The notes below the pieces were generated by a model. It made no database searches. It saw nothing but the letters and a program-made list of their open reading frames with translations, and was not told the DNA's origin. A DNA stretch of 64,000 nucleotides, from assembly GCF_000281045.1 (NCBI RefSeq), contig NW_008246084.1, positions 470,411-534,410 of the forward strand. Direction: 5' to 3'. Numbering within the stretch: the stretch's first letter is position 1; each line of letters opens with the position of its first letter. The translations under genes and the position numbers were made by a program. This stretch comes from Saprolegnia diclina VS20 (Eukaryota; Oomycota; Saprolegniomycetes; Saprolegniales; Saprolegniaceae). Shown in pieces: positions 7,324-13,646 of the stretch.

Positions 7324-8857
7324 ATGAGCGTCAAGGAAGCATTGAGCAAGATCCTCGTCGTCGTCGGGACGACGGGCGCAGGCAAGACGAAGCTATCGAT
7401 TGACCTCGCCAAGGCGCTCAATGGCGAGATCGTCAACTCGGACGCGATGCAGGTGCGCCGTCGTCCGCTCGCGTACGACTTATGCAGTGGCATCGTAGAT
7501 GTACCGAGGTCTGGACGTGGCAACGGCCAAGGTGACACAGGAGGAGATGGACGGCGTGCCGCACCACCTCTTGAGCTGCATCGACCCCGTCGAAGAGTGC
7601 ACGGTCATCCAGTACAAGGCCCTCGCCATGCGCACGGTATGATCTAGCCCTTATTTCATCAACGTCAACGACTCGCGTTAGATTCAAGATATCATTGCGC
7701 GCGGCAAGGTGCCGGTCATCGTCGGCGGTACCATGTACTACACGCAGTCGCTGCTCTGGAACGGCCAGCTCCTCGAAGACGTGCCTGGCTCCAACGGCGA
7801 CGTACCTTCAATACGATGGCATTTGAGCAACGATCTCTCAGACGCTCATTGCATTAGGCCAGTCCTGTGCCGCTACCGTCGTCGCCCGAAGAGGTCTACC
7901 GCAAGCTCCAAGAAGTCGACCCGGTCATGGCCAACGGTTTGCACTCAAAAGACGTTCGCCGGGTAGGCCGTTGTCCCTCGCTATCCTCCCGAGCTCGCGT
8001 CTCATCGCAATATTAGGTGCAGCGCAGCCTCGAGGTGTTCTACCAAACCGGCAAGCGGCACAGCGACTGGATTGCTGAGCAAAAGGCGGAAGAAAAGCTC
8101 TTTGACGCGTGTGCCTTCTGGGTCGACTGCGACCGCCCGGTCCTGAACGCCCGTCTCGACAAGCGGTATGCCATCTGATTTGTCTTCGTAAGCGTGATGG
8201 AAGATTAGGGTTGACAAGATGGTGGTCGACGGTCTCGTGCCCGAGATCGAAGGGTTGATGACCGAGATCCGCGACCACGTGGCTGCGTCACCAGTTCCGA
8301 TGGGACTCAAAGGCATCACGCAAGCGATTGGCTTCAAGGAATTTGAGGTGTACTTGACGGCAAAAGCCCAAGGCGTCGACGATGATGCGCTGCACTCGGT
8401 CCTCGCGAATTGCATCGACGAGCTCAAGGTTGGCACGCGCCAGTACGCCAAGCGCCAAGTGACATGGATCAAGAACCGGTTCGTGCCCCGGAACGTGCCG
8501 GTGTATCGCTTCGACACGTCCGTGGTCGACGCGTGGCCATCGGTGGTCGCAGCTCCTGCAATCGAGATTGCCACGTCGTTCCTTCGTGGTTTGCCCATTA
8601 TGACGCAGGCGACGTGTCAAGAGACCGACGGCGTGAGCGAGAAGAAGGGGCCGAAAACCAAGTATATGTGCACAGAGTGCGGCGGGCGCGAGTTTGTCGG
8701 ACAAGTGCAGTGGAACGAACACTTGCGCTCGAAAGGCCACCGCTTTCACCTCAAGCGCCTCCGCCTCCTTGCGTCCGGGCAGCTCTTTGAACGCGCCTCG
8801 AAAAAGCCCAAGCCAGTCGCCGACGAGAAAGCTACGACAAACAACGAGCTTGAATAG
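7324..8857 (+). CDS. TRIT1: tRNA dimethylallyltransferase (isopentenyltransferase)
   Basis: Six exons (7324..7452, 7499..7636, 7682..7801, 7858..7962, 8017..8165, 8209..8857) encode about 429 residues. The P-loop GTTGAGKTK is near residue 15, followed by the family motifs IVNSDAMQ-MYRGLDVATAK, PHHLLSCIDP and VPVIVGGTMYYTQSLLW. The enzyme transfers dimethylallyl to A37 of tRNAs reading UNN codons (i6A37). A C-terminal C2H2 zinc finger (CTECGGREF...HLRSKGHR), as in eukaryotic Mod5/TRIT1, supports a cytosolic/nuclear or dual-targeted eukaryotic type and not a bacterial MiaA. The introns are 43-56 nt. Divergent pairing with ALKBH8 puts two anticodon-loop modification enzymes under one promoter region. 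Confidence 0.92.
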
Positions 8858-9089: not shown

Positions 9090-10877
9090 TTAGTTGACGT
9101 GGATACGGGCGATCTCGCGGCCCTTTTGCGGCACGGGCGTCCGGCTGTGCAGCTGCGCATAGTTGTCCGAGAGCACGTAGTCGCCGGCTTGCCACTCGTG
9201 CGCGTACTTGAAGTCGTCGCTGTAGAGAAGCGGCACGAGCGTCTCAAAGACCCACGCCTGCTCGGCAGCGTGCTCGGCGTCGGTCGCAGCCGCCTTCTTG
9301 CTGCGAATCGCAATGTGCGTCGGCTGGAGGTTGGTCTTGTCGGCGTCCCATGGCTCGTGGAAGCGGAGGATCTCCTGGCCGTCGACCGGGTGCTGGCACA
9401 CGAGGTCCATGAAATGCGTCAGCGTCGCCGAACCGTACATGACGTTGGCCGCCGTCGTCGCCGTCATCTTGAGCGTCCGAAGACGCGCGACGTCTTCCGA
9501 CGGCAAGGCCGCGAGGAGCCGGCGCGTGTCGACAAACATGGTGCGACCGAACGGCGAATCACGAACCGGGTACGGCGCAAAGCACTGGAAGAACTGGTAC
9601 AAGGGCACATCGCCGAGGATGTCGCTGTCGGGAATGCGCTTGAACATGCCGTCGTAGTGGAATGCCATGGGTTCGTGCGACCGCGACGCGAGGCCGGAGG
9701 CGCCGTCTTGCTTGAGCTCGAGCGTGCTGCCCGTGGGCCACATGAGGATCTCGCCAATGTGCGACGCGAGCATGTCTTGGTTTTCGTCGGTGCGGAAGCC
9801 GCGGAGGAGCACGACGCTGTACTTGGTCGCGAGCGCGCGAAGCGCAATCTTGGGCAGCGCCGTGATCGAGACAGGTGACGACGCGATCAGCGTCACGCCC
9901 TGGCGCCACGGCTGCACGGCAATCGCGAGGCGCGCCCACTCGGGCGAAAGGTCGGGCACTTCGCGGTAGAACCACGGACGGCCAAACTTGGTGACGACTT
10001 CGTACTTTGTCTTGTCGACGTCTTCGTGCTTGCATGCGAATTCGGTGCCGTCCATGCGCTGCACAATGACGCAGTGCCACGGCGTCGTCGGCGCCGTCTC
10101 GGACGCTTCAAGCTGCGGGATCAAGTGCACACCAAACTTGGGACCTGCGTTGTCAAACGCGTGGATTGAGAGCCGAATCGCATCGCCAAAGACGTCGTTG
10201 ACGAGGCTTGAGAACGCAATGTTGCGCCGAATCATCTCGCGCGCGGCCGATGTGATCGCGTTTGCTTTCGCAGCCGCGTCCAAGTGCGCGTACGTGGCGA
10301 GGAGGTCGCGCCCGATGAACGAGTGAAACGTGTTGTACGTGTTGCGCAAGCCCGCGTTCGTGGCCAAAACGTCGTCCAAGTCGAGGGCGTCGACGCCGTA
10401 CCGGGCCTTGACCTCGGCGATTTGGTTGACTGACGTCTTCGTGTGGTTGTCGAGGCTGTCAAACTCCAAGTGCGTGTGCGTGGTCGACGCCAGAAGCTGC
10501 ACGAGCGCCGCCTTGTACGCGAGTACGTCGTCGTCCGTGACGCCGAGCACTTGGCTGAAGACGCGGCCGTCGCTAAAGATCTTGGCGCGCGCGCCGCGGG
10601 GGTAGACCTTTTCGATCGCGACGCACGCCGCCTCCAAGCGCGCGAGGCCGATCTCTTCGCCGCGGTCCGGGAGCTTCCCGAGCACTTCGGTCTCCGTGTT
10701 GGGCGACTTGCAAGGGAAGCCGGGGAGAACGAGCGAGATCGGTTCGTCCTTCTCGATCGCGCGCGCAATGAGCTTGCTCAGGAACGCGCGGCCGTCGGTC
10801 TCAAACTTGTCCTCGGGCTTGATGTTGAGGAGCGGGCGCAGCGCGTCAATGATGCGGTCCATGGTCGATTGCACCAT
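9090..10877 (-). CDS. Isocyanide synthase (Dit1/PvcA) fused to TauD/TfdA dioxygenase
   Basis: A single exon from the ATG at 10877 encodes 595 residues. Residues 1-305 are a Dit1/PvcA isocyanide-synthase domain with PGFPCKSPN (52-60), LPDRGEE (69-75) and FSDGR (101-105). Residues 310-595 are a TauD/TfdA Fe(II)/2-oxoglutarate dioxygenase with an intact triad, His407-x-Asp409 in AFHYDG and distal His577 in YAQLHSR, plus Arg588/591 near the end as the 2-oxoglutarate contact. PvcA-type enzymes turn an amino-acid amine into an isonitrile using ribulose-5-phosphate; PvcB-type dioxygenases then oxidise or desaturate the product. The fusion places both steps on one chain. A second stand-alone synthase lies head-to-head 1.6 kb away. 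A second in-frame ATG (10862) is an alternative start. The substrate amino acid cannot be read from sequence. Confidence 0.88.
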   Translation of the reverse strand: MVQSTMDRIIDALRPLLNIKPEDKFETDGRAFLSKLIARAIEKDEPISLVLPGFPCKSPNTETEVLGKLPDRGEEIGLARLEAACVAIEKVYPRGARAKIFSDGRVFSQVLGVTDDDVLAYKAALVQLLASTTHTHLEFDSLDNHTKTSVNQIAEVKARYGVDALDLDDVLATNAGLRNTYNTFHSFIGRDLLATYAHLDAAAKANAITSAAREMIRRNIAFSSLVNDVFGDAIRLSIHAFDNAGPKFGVHLIPQLEASETAPTTPWHCVIVQRMDGTEFACKHEDVDKTKYEVVTKFGRPWFYREVPDLSPEWARLAIAVQPWRQGVTLIASSPVSITALPKIALRALATKYSVVLLRGFRTDENQDMLASHIGEILMWPTGSTLELKQDGASGLASRSHEPMAFHYDGMFKRIPDSDILGDVPLYQFFQCFAPYPVRDSPFGRTMFVDTRRLLAALPSEDVARLRTLKMTATTAANVMYGSATLTHFMDLVCQHPVDGQEILRFHEPWDADKTNLQPTHIAIRSKKAAATDAEHAAEQAWVFETLVPLLYSDDFKYAHEWQAGDYVLSDNYAQLHSRTPVPQKGREIARIHVN

Positions 10878-12512
10878 ATTTGTTCGTGTACTGTGGATAG
10901 AGAAGTTGGGTTTGTTGGAAAATGTGGTGGGCGGGCGGGGTCGTTGAGAGAGGACGACACGAGCTCGCTGCTGGAAAAAGAGCAAATTGAAAAATGACAA
11001 TCGAGTATGGATCTTTTGGGCGCGAATGTCGGTTTTTCGAACCTCTGATCACGGAAATGTCAGAGATGCGCGTGTCGCACACAACCGAAGTCCGATTGCG
11101 CCGCGGAATAATACGCTCGGTGTCCACCCTATCTGCCATCTGTTTTCGATTAGGGTCTGGTTATGCACAGTACTGCACAGAAGTATTCCCTACATATTTT
11201 TCCCATACATGGCTGTAGCTGACAAAGAATAGAAGCTATCGAATGTAGGCGGACGACACGTGGAGTAGCGACTTGCGATGGAGCTTCGAGCGATTGTGAT
11301 CACACCACAAGTGGTTGGGAACCATCTGAGTAACGCTTGTCTTTGCGCATACAGCACCTGTGTTGAGACCTACCCCTTGATCACGGTACGGAGTGCTACT
11401 GAGTACCGCCCGCGAATCAGCACCGTGTTTCGAGGCGCAATCTCGGCTGTCGATTCTTTCTTTATCAAACGTGCGCGGATCGTGTAGTGCGACCAAGTAA
11501 TAGCAAGGCTACCGGCAACGTAATGCCGCTCACAACCGCAGCTACCATGGGTTGTTTGACGCTACGACCGGTATTGCAGGTTTACTCAGCTACGTACGAC
11601 CATTGCAAGCTCCTTTCTATGAACCGCTTCGTTGGCGTCGTGATTTCCGTTGACGGCATCGGATGTGCGACGAAGTTCGCACCCGAGCCGTGTCCGGCAA
11701 GGCAAAGTGTCTGCGTTCAAGGCGTCAATGCCACGCACTTCGTCGCACCGCACATCTCGCATGCACGCAGCTACATATATTTGCGTACTGGTACCACCGA
11801 GCTACAATAATGTATATGGCTGTCGCAGGAACCGCAGCGGAAGTCAGCGGAAGTAAATGTTTTCAAAGACACCTGTTGCCGCGTCACGGTTTCGAGCGTT
11901 TTGATTGGGTCTACGCACCCCGCGCGCGTACCACTCGCCCATGTGGCGGCCATACGTTTTCCTGCAGTGCCAACTCTTGCGACTTTGACTTGTTTCGATA
12001 GTGAGTGTTGACATCGTCCATCGGGCTTGACAGTATCTTGGCCGTCGTGTTGAGGCCGTAGCGACTACAAATACGACTTAGTCCTGATACGGAGGCGCTG
12101 CAGCTGCTTACGACGACGTCCAAGATCGCGAGCATCCCACTGCCTCGTGTGAAATTACGACGTTGTGTAGTCATTTTGCGAGGTTTACAGCGTGTACAGT
12201 ATTGGGGAAAGGAAGACGATCACGAAAGCAGTCCTGGATTCAAAGGTGGGACGTTTGTGAGCTAGGCCATGTATATTCCGCAAACAGCCAGCGACAAAGA
12301 AGCTGGGCGTCGATCTGGTGAAGTCCTCTCGTTGCCGTCACCCGTTCGTCACCCAAGAGCCATTCGTATCAGTCGGATCTGCTGGATGCTTTCATACCGC
12401 CTATATTTGTATCTTTGTATGCAAAGGCAATCCAAACTTTGGCGTTGGACATGGTAGTGCTGTTGGAGTTGAGACTCGAAGCTCACTTTTCAATTTGCCT
12501 CACACAGTCGCC
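10878..12512. other. Intergenic region between two divergent isocyanide-synthase genes
   Basis: This 1.6-kb region should hold both promoters. Short open frames occur on both strands, for example a minus-strand frame of about 87 codons near 11911-12174, but they lack the strong third-position GC of the neighbouring genes and match nothing I recognise. A CACGTG core sits at about 11258. No RNA gene or transposon is recognisable. Confidence 0.5.
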
Positions 12513-13646
12513 ATGGTTTGCTACAGCACCGATATCGAACGCATGCCCGAGTGCACGGCGCCGTTTGCGACGCTTTGTGCGAACGACTCGCAGCCGGTCC
12601 CCACGACCAAGTCGCCTTTCTCGTTCCTTGCGCTCTTGCTCGACTATTGGAGCCGCTACCTCCCGAGCCAGTACCCGCAGCGCGCTGCGCTGGAGAGCGC
12701 ACCGGTCACCAAGTCCACATCGCCCGACGACATTGTTACCGCCGTCCTCGCTGCCCTTCTCCCGATGCTCCACAAGATTCCCGGTGATCGGTTTGATGCC
12801 GAAGGTCGCTTCAAGGTCGAAGCGGCTGTCATGCGTGCGATCGACGCCAAGCAGCCCCTCACGTTTGTGATCCCGGCCTTTCCCTTCAAGTCGCCCAACA
12901 CAGCCGAAAAGACGCTCGGCGTGCTGCCGGACCGCGGTGAAGAGCTTGCGATGCAACGCCTCGAGACGCTTTGCCGCGAGATCGAGGCTGTGTACACGCC
13001 TGGCGCTCAGATGGTCATCTTCAGCGACGGTCGCATCTTCAACGACATCATTGGCGTCTCGACAGACGCCATGGACGCCTACATCGCCGAGCTCGAGGCC
13101 ATGGCGGTCGCGGCGCAGCATACGCACATCAAGTTTGACCGACTCGAGAACTACACCACCACCGAAGACCCCAACCAGGAGCTTCTCGAGCGCTACAACT
13201 GCGACAAGATCGACATGAAGAAGCTTCTAAAGGACGACGCGGGCGTCCTTGCCACGTACCGCGGCTTCCGTCGCTTCCTCACCAAGGACCTCGCGCACAA
13301 GTGGGTCGGCATGTCCAAGTCGGCCATCGATAAGGCTGCGGGGGCCGCCGCCAAGCTCATGATCCAGCGCAACATGGCCTTCTCGACGCTCGTCGACGAC
13401 TGCTATCCGGACGCGATCCGCCTCTCGATCCACGCCTACGACAACGCGGGCCCCAAGTACGGTGTCGCCCTCATCCCGCAGCTTCAGAGCTCCAACGGGT
13501 CGATCCCGACTACGCCGTGGCACTGCGTCATGGTCACCGATGAACACGGTCGCGAGTTCTCGGCCAAGCACGAAGATATCGATCTGGAGCGGTACGAGCT
13601 GCAGTACAAGTTTGGCCGGGCGTGGTGCTATACGGCCAAGCCGTAG
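12513..13646 (+). CDS. Isocyanide synthase, Dit1/PvcA family, stand-alone
   Basis: A single exon from the ATG at 12513 (context CGCCATGG) encodes 377 residues. After an 80-residue N-terminal region without a recognised domain, it follows the synthase domain of the divergent gene almost block by block: IPAFPFKSPN, LPDRGEE, FSDGR, SIHAYDNAGPK, TTPWHC, KHEDI. It ends at the position where the neighbour continues into the dioxygenase. The two genes are therefore paralogs and the difference is loss or gain of TauD. The conserved motifs suggest an active enzyme making an isonitrile. The role could be siderophore- or chalkophore-like metal binding, or defence, as known for bacterial and fungal isocyanides; that is inference. 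Confidence 0.85.
   Translation: MVCYSTDIERMPECTAPFATLCANDSQPVPTTKSPFSFLALLLDYWSRYLPSQYPQRAALESAPVTKSTSPDDIVTAVLAALLPMLHKIPGDRFDAEGRFKVEAAVMRAIDAKQPLTFVIPAFPFKSPNTAEKTLGVLPDRGEELAMQRLETLCREIEAVYTPGAQMVIFSDGRIFNDIIGVSTDAMDAYIAELEAMAVAAQHTHIKFDRLENYTTTEDPNQELLERYNCDKIDMKKLLKDDAGVLATYRGFRRFLTKDLAHKWVGMSKSAIDKAAGAAAKLMIQRNMAFSTLVDDCYPDAIRLSIHAYDNAGPKYGVALIPQLQSSNGSIPTTPWHCVMVTDEHGREFSAKHEDIDLERYELQYKFGRAWCYTAKP

What the first reader, a model, noticed from the sequence alone, without database searches (positions are those of the whole stretch)
9090..13646. Head-to-head pair of isocyanide-synthase genes, one fused to a TauD dioxygenase, in an oomycete-like genome
Seen: two paralogous Dit1/PvcA domains (shared KSPN, LPDRGEE, FSDGR, TTPWHC) on opposite strands 1.6 kb apart; one continues into a TauD domain with an intact His407-x-Asp409...His577 triad. 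Known: PvcA-type synthases make isonitriles and PvcB-type dioxygenases tailor them; they occur in bacterial and fungal clusters. Inferred: a minimal two-gene isonitrile locus in a protist, with one protein doing both steps. This is the strongest candidate in the window for an undescribed biosynthetic system. No P450, transporter or regulator lies directly beside it.
Basis: partly seen in the sequence, partly recalled or inferred. Interest (0 to 1): 0.82.

Follow-up and report, generated by a model that had tools for sequence, protein, structure and literature searches.

The report
Paired oomycete isonitrile-synthase genes
A water mould carries two back-to-back genes for making isonitriles (reactive, metal-binding small molecules); the enzyme family is already recorded in such organisms, but the fused enzyme has replaced two residues that nearly all relatives examined keep, which suggests that the two proteins may have divided the work.

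Summary
Window 9090-10877 (-) encodes a 595-aa isocyanide synthase fused to a TauD dioxygenase (DOX); 12513-13646 (+) encodes a 377-aa stand-alone synthase (MONO); start codons lie 1,635 bp apart, head to head. The genome is Saprolegnia diclina or very close. Its four synthase domains found form two head-to-head MONO/DOX pairs. Family and fusion are not new: oomycete synthases, fused ICS-dioxygenases and a fungal cluster with one mono and one fused synthase are published. Not seen in the papers searched: (a) the Saprolegniales pair is an old duplication of its own, in which MONO probably lost TauD; (b) all 6 DOX-type synthase domains of Saprolegniales replaced a Lys and an Asp that 154 of 157 other homologues keep (each), while 7 of 7 MONO-type domains keep both; (c) TauD domains look shuffled or homogenised between paralogues (S. 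parasitica SPRG_15642; P. ramorum); (d) the dioxygenase carries the published residue signature of vinyl-isonitrile formers. Most likely MONO makes tyrosine isonitrile and the TauD domain turns it into vinyl isonitrile. Whether the fused synthase domain is active, altered or only a partner is open; general decay was not seen. No product or expression evidence exists here.

The parts
9090..10877 (-). DOX: ICS-TauD fusion gene, 595 aa, ATG at 10877, stop codon at 9090-9092
9993..10769 (-). isocyanide synthase domain of DOX (PF05141, residues 37-295)
   Evidence: AlphaFold model matches PIsnA and PvcA crystal structures
9102..9845 (-). TauD dioxygenase domain of DOX (PF02668, residues 345-592); His407 (9657-9659), Asp409 (9651-9653), His577 (9147-9149)
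10686..10688 (-). Glu64: Lys in 154 of 157 other homologues, Glu in 6 of 6 Saprolegniales DOX-type rows
10551..10553 (-). Gln109: Asp in 154 of 157 other homologues; Gln, Lys or Ala in 6 of 6 Saprolegniales DOX-type rows
10878..12512 (.). 1,635-bp region between the two start codons, presumed divergent promoter region; 631 bp at the second pair; no convincing shared motif
12513..13646 (+). MONO: stand-alone isocyanide synthase gene, 377 aa
12828..13601 (+). isocyanide synthase domain of MONO (PF05141)
12909..12911 (+). Lys133 of MONO, kept (counterpart of DOX Glu64)
13044..13046 (+). Asp178 of MONO, kept (counterpart of DOX Gln109)

Best explanation
This is a divergently arranged pair of isocyanide-synthase paralogues of Saprolegniales. 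Inferred chemistry: MONO joins the amine of L-tyrosine (or L-tryptophan) to a carbon of ribulose-5-phosphate and makes the amino-acid isonitrile. The Fe/2-oxoglutarate TauD domain of DOX then desaturates and decarboxylates it to the vinyl isonitrile (PIsnB type). Shown by sequence or model: both folds, the iron triad and the residues that hold the substrate carboxylate in the dioxygenase, the PIsnB-type signature, an intact synthase core in MONO, and a fused synthase domain that keeps most of its core but has replaced two near-invariant charged residues. Inferred: that the two proteins act in one pathway, that MONO is the main source of isonitrile, and that the fused synthase domain is changed in activity, substrate or partner role. 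The biological role (copper handling or antimicrobial use, as reported for fungi) is by analogy only.
For: Family and fold. Numbering check: His101, Asp103, Trp74 and Lys107 of PIsnB (7TCL) fall where the paper puts them (PMC9467999, passages). The rule of that paper (Lys/Arg at 107 and Asn/His at 188 in vinyl-isonitrile formers; Leu and Cys in isocyanoacrylate formers) is met with Lys and His in 7 of 7 Saprolegniales rows and 11 of 12 further rows of the oomycete group. The window MONO agrees with all 25 columns conserved at 98% or more; the window DOX departs at 2. Both genes recur as pairs: 4 of 4 PF05141 places found in this genome lie in 2 divergent MONO/DOX pairs. S. parasitica (two pairs) and Achlya (one) carry neighbouring locus tags on contigs of equal length.
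Against: No expression, product or enzyme data. Dit1 of yeast, from the same family, is reported not to be an isocyanide synthase (PMC7345447, passages), so family and motifs do not prove the product. Single exchanges at the two signature positions of a PIsnB orthologue did not change its product profile (PMC9467999, passage), so the signature is a correlate, not a proven switch. The fused synthase domain keeps 28 of 30 columns conserved at 95% or more, and 25 of 30 relative-rate tests show no faster change in it, so it need not have lost synthase activity. That the two proteins share a pathway rests on gene pairing alone; no shared promoter motif was found.
Confidence: 0.6

Rival explanations
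1. Both synthase domains are fully active, perhaps on different amino acids (for example Tyr and Trp), and the pair makes two isonitriles; the fused protein alone carries out synthesis and tailoring.
For: The fused domain keeps the rest of the conserved core and shows no general decay. The residue just before the invariant Lys differs between paralogues: Phe in 7 of 7 MONO-type and Cys in 6 of 6 DOX-type rows; Phe in 5 of 5 and Thr in 5 of 5 rows of the two Phytophthora clades. One row (P0005) has Glu64 with Lys109, a charge swap that would suit a structural salt bridge rather than a catalytic pair.
Against: Two residues, each kept in 154 of 157 homologues, are replaced in all 6 DOX-type rows. 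Residues that select Tyr against Trp are not known to me, so the Phe/Cys difference is only a correlation.
Confidence: 0.3
2. Dit1-like role: MONO makes N-formyltyrosine (or an isonitrile that hydrolyses to it) for a spore or cyst wall, and the dioxygenase acts on the formyl compound.
For: Dit1 is in the same family and its product is most likely formyl tyrosine (PMC7345447, passages). PIsnB and PvcB convert the N-formyl analogue in vitro (PMC9467999, passages).
Against: No P450 (the Dit2 step) lies on either contig: 0 of 49 P450 matches found in this genome; P450s elsewhere in the genome could still serve. The NCBIfam tyrosine isonitrile synthase model matches both proteins (E 5e-35 and 7e-40), though far below its cut-off. 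Dit1 itself was not in my tree, so kinship to it was not tested.
Confidence: 0.13
3. Relic: the pair is a decaying leftover without function.
For: No expression data were available; no tailoring genes recognised nearby.
Against: Intact reading frames, core motifs kept across S. diclina, S. parasitica and Achlya, and both members of both pairs present in the two Saprolegnia species.
Confidence: 0.04

Closest known systems
A. fumigatus ICS4G cluster (icsA mono + icsB ICS-dioxygenase) and fungal GCF 1 with two ICS enzymes (Lim 2018 PMC5974471; Nickles 2023 preprint PMC10153163; passages)
   Same: one stand-alone and one fused synthase in one locus (4G cluster); two paralogues kept since an old duplication (GCF 1)
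   Different: the oomycete pair arose by its own duplication inside oomycetes; head to head with 1.6 kb and 0.6 kb between starts; no cluster-type regulator, transporter or P450 directly beside it among the ORFs scanned; replaced Lys and Asp in the fused domain. Neither fungal protein was identified by name in my alignments
XanB of the xanthocillin pathway (fungal ICS-dioxygenase)
   Same: same domain order; Lys and His at the two signature positions is the commonest pattern among the non-oomycete, non-locus fused rows, which are largely fungal; fungal and oomycete TauD domains lie together, apart from the bacterial fused ones, with a long-branch warning
   Different: 32% identity to a protein named xanB (P0028); no xan-type cluster recognised around it
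PIsnA / PIsnB and PvcA / PvcB of bacteria
   Same: fold of each domain; iron triad; the 107/188 signature of PIsnB
   Different: separate proteins; the fused DOX synthase lacks the second conserved Lys and the Asp that the PIsnA and PvcA chains have (alignments)
Phytophthora paralogue pairs (PRNP1_013258 and PRNP1_013262)
   Same: two synthase paralogues on a contig of the same length; one Phe-type, one not
   Different: both fused; their synthase domains are 61% identical but their TauD domains 96%
Yeast Dit1
   Same: same Pfam family (recalled and from the text of PMC7345447)
   Different: product most likely formyl tyrosine; partner is a P450, not a dioxygenase

Membership tests
DIT1_PvcA family (PF05141) | Pfam match over the gathering score across the whole model | tested here: met
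   DOX 232.5 bits and MONO 267.6 bits against 26.4
Isocyanide synthase (PvcA/PIsnA type) | conserved core residues of the family, in MONO | tested here: met
   29 of 30 columns conserved at 95% or more; the exception is Leu to Ile
Isocyanide synthase (PvcA/PIsnA type) | same core in the synthase domain of DOX | tested here: inconclusive
   28 of 30 kept in the window protein; Lys64 and Asp109 replaced in 6 of 6 DOX-type rows; the role of these two residues is unknown to me
Isocyanide synthase (PvcA/PIsnA type) | makes an isonitrile from Tyr or Trp and ribulose-5-phosphate | not testable with these tools
   needs an enzyme assay
NCBIfam NF045653 L-tyrosine isonitrile synthase (equivalog) | score over the curated cut-off of 600 bits | tested here: not met
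   121 bits (DOX) and 136.9 bits (MONO)
ICS-dioxygenase fusion (ICS-DOX) | PF05141 followed by PF02668 in one frame | tested here: met
PIsnB-type Fe/2OG vinyl-isonitrile former | Lys/Arg at PIsnB 107 and Asn/His at 188, with His-x-Asp...His | tested here: met
   HYDGMFK and RFHEP; the signature is only a correlate of the product
PIsnB-type Fe/2OG vinyl-isonitrile former | makes vinyl isonitrile | not testable with these tools
   needs an enzyme assay
PvcB-type isocyanoacrylate former | Leu at 107 and Cys at 188 | tested here: not met
   Lys and His
Biosynthetic gene cluster | tailoring, transport or regulator genes beside the synthase | tested here: inconclusive
   26 ORFs scanned, 2 of them the pair itself: nothing of the kind directly beside it; a bZIP gene about 7 kb away and TauE-like exporter pieces about 14 kb away; no P450 on either contig. 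ORFs without a Pfam match, introns and unread flank leave gaps
Dit1-type formyl-tyrosine synthase | formyl tyrosine as product, P450 partner | not testable with these tools
   product not testable; no P450 found on the contig

The most novel reading that the evidence does not exclude
In Saprolegniales the synthase half of the fused enzyme has become a pseudo-synthase (or a synthase with changed chemistry), and the neighbouring stand-alone paralogue now supplies the isonitrile in trans, perhaps in a complex, so that the head-to-head pair is one obligate two-protein enzyme. S. parasitica SPRG_15642, which joins a MONO-type synthase with both residues kept to a near-identical dioxygenase, would then be a recombinant that has the one-protein solution again.
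Probability: 0.25. Interest if true: 0.6.

Novelty: new variant of a known kind. Interest (0 to 1): 0.42.

Why it matters
Isonitriles bind transition metals, and fungal and bacterial ones are tied to copper handling, competition and infection (PMC10153163, PMC5974471, passages). In the passages that I read, oomycetes appear only as holders of the genes (10 species, Lim et al. 2018); the searches listed no title about an oomycete isonitrile, though I opened passages of four papers only and most subscription journals are not in that library. The locus gives a concrete, cheap test of whether water moulds make isonitriles, predicts a product class (vinyl isonitrile), and offers an evolutionary comparison of two synthases that could show what the conserved Lys and Asp do.

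Tried and rejected
General decay of the fused synthase domain: not supported. Relative-rate tests were significant (p under 0.05, uncorrected) in 5 of 30, all in C17-type pairs and all with the fused member faster; at 70% conservation both window proteins depart at 12 of 71 columns. Against this, the synthase domain is less conserved than the TauD domain between C17-type and C16-type fused proteins (8 pairs, difference -0.09 to -0.19, reached by 0 to 0.2% of matched pairs of other fused proteins); the other 7 Saprolegniales pairs lie at 1.3-2.2% (2) or in the usual range (5). I prefer TauD gene conversion as the cause, because two other cases show it, but faster change of the fused synthase is not excluded.

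Relic of a TauD domain behind MONO: none found; the only tblastn matches outside DOX have E 0.14 or worse.

Shared promoter motif of the two intergenic regions: not convincing (one shared 12-mer, reached by 14 of 200 shuffles; 11-mers by 31 of 200).

Membrane anchor in the MONO N-terminal extension: not supported; the most hydrophobic 15 residues of the first 110 lie in a core helix, and residues 1-37 and 46-65 were modelled below pLDDT 50.

Grouping MONO or DOX with Peronosporales instead of with each other: rejected by AU tests, p 0.004 and 0.006; I named these groups after seeing the tree, which weakens the test.

Structure: no coordinates could be measured, so the distance of residues 64 and 109 from the active site and from each other is not known. 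Domain orientation in DOX is uncertain (pTM 0.56); residues 58-66, which include residue 64, have pLDDT under 50. The 2008 PvcA/PvcB structure paper is not held. Two paper searches for the synthase structure gave none or one paper on another enzyme; none of the 25 papers listed held the word PIsnA.

Rows dropped before counts: P0037 and P0017 (synthase piece under 200 aa) and P0024 (identical to the C16 stand-alone protein); 220 other rows were reduced to 157 at 90% identity. The trees used 94 and 56 chosen rows, not all hits; of 373 profile hits the best 120 were listed, and the best 80 of 222 loci were kept. P0043 is the 1 of 12 rows where my pattern for the signature failed. In one search I gave the label oomycete to seven unnamed rows; two of them (P0048, P0122) fell outside the oomycete group.
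Full report
What is there. The window lies on contig C17 of a 54.15-Mb genome. A second synthase locus of that genome encodes a stand-alone protein identical over 332 of 332 residues to SDRG_06026 of Saprolegnia diclina VS20, so the genome is S. diclina or very close. DOX (9090-10877, minus strand, 595 aa) carries PF05141 and PF02668; MONO (12513-13646, plus strand, 377 aa) carries PF05141 alone. They are head to head with 1,635 bp between the start codons.

A second copy of the arrangement. Of 4 PF05141 places found in the genome, 2 are in the window and 2 on contig C16, again a stand-alone and a fused gene, head to head, 631 bp apart. S. parasitica has SPRG_08497/08498 (92% and 94% identical to the window pair) and SPRG_10779/10780; Achlya hypogyna has ACHHYP_01833/01834. 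The orientation in those species was not seen; neighbouring tags and equal contig lengths were.

Surroundings. Pfam scans covered 26 ORFs: 6 (the two synthase genes among them) and 20, picked by codon usage from the first 36 kb of the window, its left flank and the left flank of the second pair. Around the window pair they give an AlkB-like 2OG oxygenase, a tRNA isopentenyltransferase, an Spb4-type helicase, a BMT5-like methyltransferase, a bZIP protein (about 7 kb to the right), a SNARE, a helicase piece, RCC1 repeats, a homoserine dehydrogenase piece and TauE-like exporter pieces (about 14 kb to the left); beside the second pair TPR, KH and CHAT domains. Eight ORFs had no match (6, 2). None of 49 P450 matches found in the genome lies on C16 or C17. 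So at this resolution the locus is a two-gene unit, not a classical cluster. Much of the right flank of the second pair could not be read.

Phylogeny. In a careful tree of 94 synthase domains, 32 rows from Saprolegniales, Phytophthora, Pythium/Globisporangium and Albugo form one starred group (100/96; 27 named or own-genome rows, 5 unnamed). Within it the Saprolegniales MONO-type and DOX-type rows are sister groups (100/98), and each splits into a C16 and a C17 type. The pair therefore arose by duplication in the Saprolegniales line, before Saprolegnia and Achlya parted, and was then duplicated, most simply as a unit. In the TauD tree one Achlya row (ACHHYP_06126) sits outside both types instead of with C17, which fits exchange between TauD domains. 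Grouping either member with Peronosporales is rejected (AU p 0.004 and 0.006; groups named after the tree was seen). Because Peronosporales are mostly fused and the TauD domains of both orders group together (96/91, with one unnamed row), loss of TauD in the MONO line is the simplest reading. No relic of it was found behind MONO. The oomycete group is not nested in the sampled fungal or bacterial groups, so no recent transfer is indicated; the root is a midpoint and an ancient transfer is not excluded.

The dioxygenase half. The AlphaFold model matches PIsnB (7TCL) and PvcB (3EAT, 4YLM). Residues named in the PIsnB paper (PMC9467999, passages) are in place: the His-Asp-His triad, the Trp of the WP motif, Lys at position 107, and the Arg that anchors the carboxylate (Arg591 here, invariant in the 14-row alignment). 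With Lys at 107 and His at 188 the domain is PIsnB-type, which predicts vinyl isonitrile. The same holds in 7 of 7 Saprolegniales rows and 11 of 12 other rows of the oomycete group. The authors confirmed the prediction with one orthologue, but single exchanges at these positions did not change its products, so the signature is a predictor, not a proven switch.

The synthase halves. Of 30 alignment columns with one residue in at least 95% of 157 non-redundant other homologues, MONO departs at one (Leu to Ile or Met). The DOX-type rows depart in all 6 of 6 at two: Lys64 to Glu (Lys in 154 of 157, Gln in the other 3) and Asp109 to Gln, Lys or Ala (Asp in 154 of 157); at two further columns a single row departs. 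All 7 MONO-type rows keep Lys and Asp; SPRG_15642, which is fused but has a MONO-type synthase, is counted among them. No other row departs at both positions; at one position depart 22 pseudomonad loci (Gln64) and P0046, P0061 and L052 (109). P0005 has Glu64 with Lys109, a charge swap, which hints at a salt bridge. General decay of the domain is not seen: 5 of 30 relative-rate tests are significant, and departures at moderately conserved columns are equal (12 and 12 of 71). So two specific residues changed in a domain that is otherwise kept. Either they are structural and were re-set, or the chemistry or substrate changed, or the domain no longer synthesises.

Domain shuffling. S. parasitica SPRG_15642 is identical to the MONO protein SPRG_08497 over residues 181-330 (150 of 150) and then nearly identical to the DOX dioxygenase SPRG_08498 (residues 421-630: 201 of 210), with a less similar stretch between. 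Phytophthora ramorum has two fused paralogues with synthase domains 61% and TauD domains 96% identical. Both patterns fit gene conversion or recombination that spreads one dioxygenase among different synthases. SPRG_15642 lies on a 39-kb contig and could be an assembly product; this was not tested. At the residue before the invariant Lys, both lines keep one Phe-type synthase and one other (Cys in Saprolegniales, Thr in Phytophthora), a parallel worth testing as a substrate difference.

Reading. The most likely mechanism is MONO making tyrosine isonitrile and the TauD domain of DOX making vinyl isonitrile from it. Steps shown: gene structure, domains, predicted fold, residue patterns, pairing, phylogeny. 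Steps inferred: every reaction, the shared pathway, the role. The main rival inside the family is that both synthases work, perhaps on different amino acids; the main rival outside it is a Dit1-like formyl-tyrosine role.

Novelty. Synthases in oomycetes, ICS-dioxygenase fusions and a fungal mono-plus-fused cluster are in print (PMC5974471, PMC10153163, passages). Paper searches for oomycete or Saprolegnia together with isocyanide, isonitrile or dityrosine terms listed no title about this locus or an oomycete isonitrile; supplementary tables of Lim et al., which may list these proteins, were not open to me. The Saprolegniales pair with its altered fused synthase is therefore, as far as seen, a new variant of a known kind.

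Noticed in passing
[not shown]
   Followed up: no
P. ramorum PRNP1_013258 and PRNP1_013262 (P0009, P0008): Synthase domains 61% identical but TauD domains 96% identical within one species: probable gene conversion of the dioxygenase half.
   Followed up: partly
S. parasitica SPRG_15642 (P0004): Mosaic protein of a MONO-type synthase and a DOX-type dioxygenase; no counterpart among the 4 PF05141 places found in the window's genome.
   Followed up: partly
G000 contig C1, locus L088: Another TauD protein (616-aa ORF) in which the TauD domain is followed by a long C-terminal part; not scanned against Pfam.
   Followed up: no
bacterial loci L008-L053 (fused ones): In none of 45 bacterial fused ICS-dioxygenase rows did my patterns show Lys/Arg at 107 or Asn/His at 188 (mostly Leu or Pro and Gln); in 7 of the 45 one or both patterns were not found. 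Their product class may differ.
   Followed up: no
22 Pseudomonas loci: Gln in place of the near-invariant Lys (DOX position 64) in fused synthases, with Asp109 kept.
   Followed up: no
window 7324-8857: tRNA isopentenyltransferase coding sequence split over at least two ORFs (7324-7647 and 8198-8857), probably an intron; zinc-finger-like stretch at its C-terminus below the Pfam cut-off.
   Followed up: no
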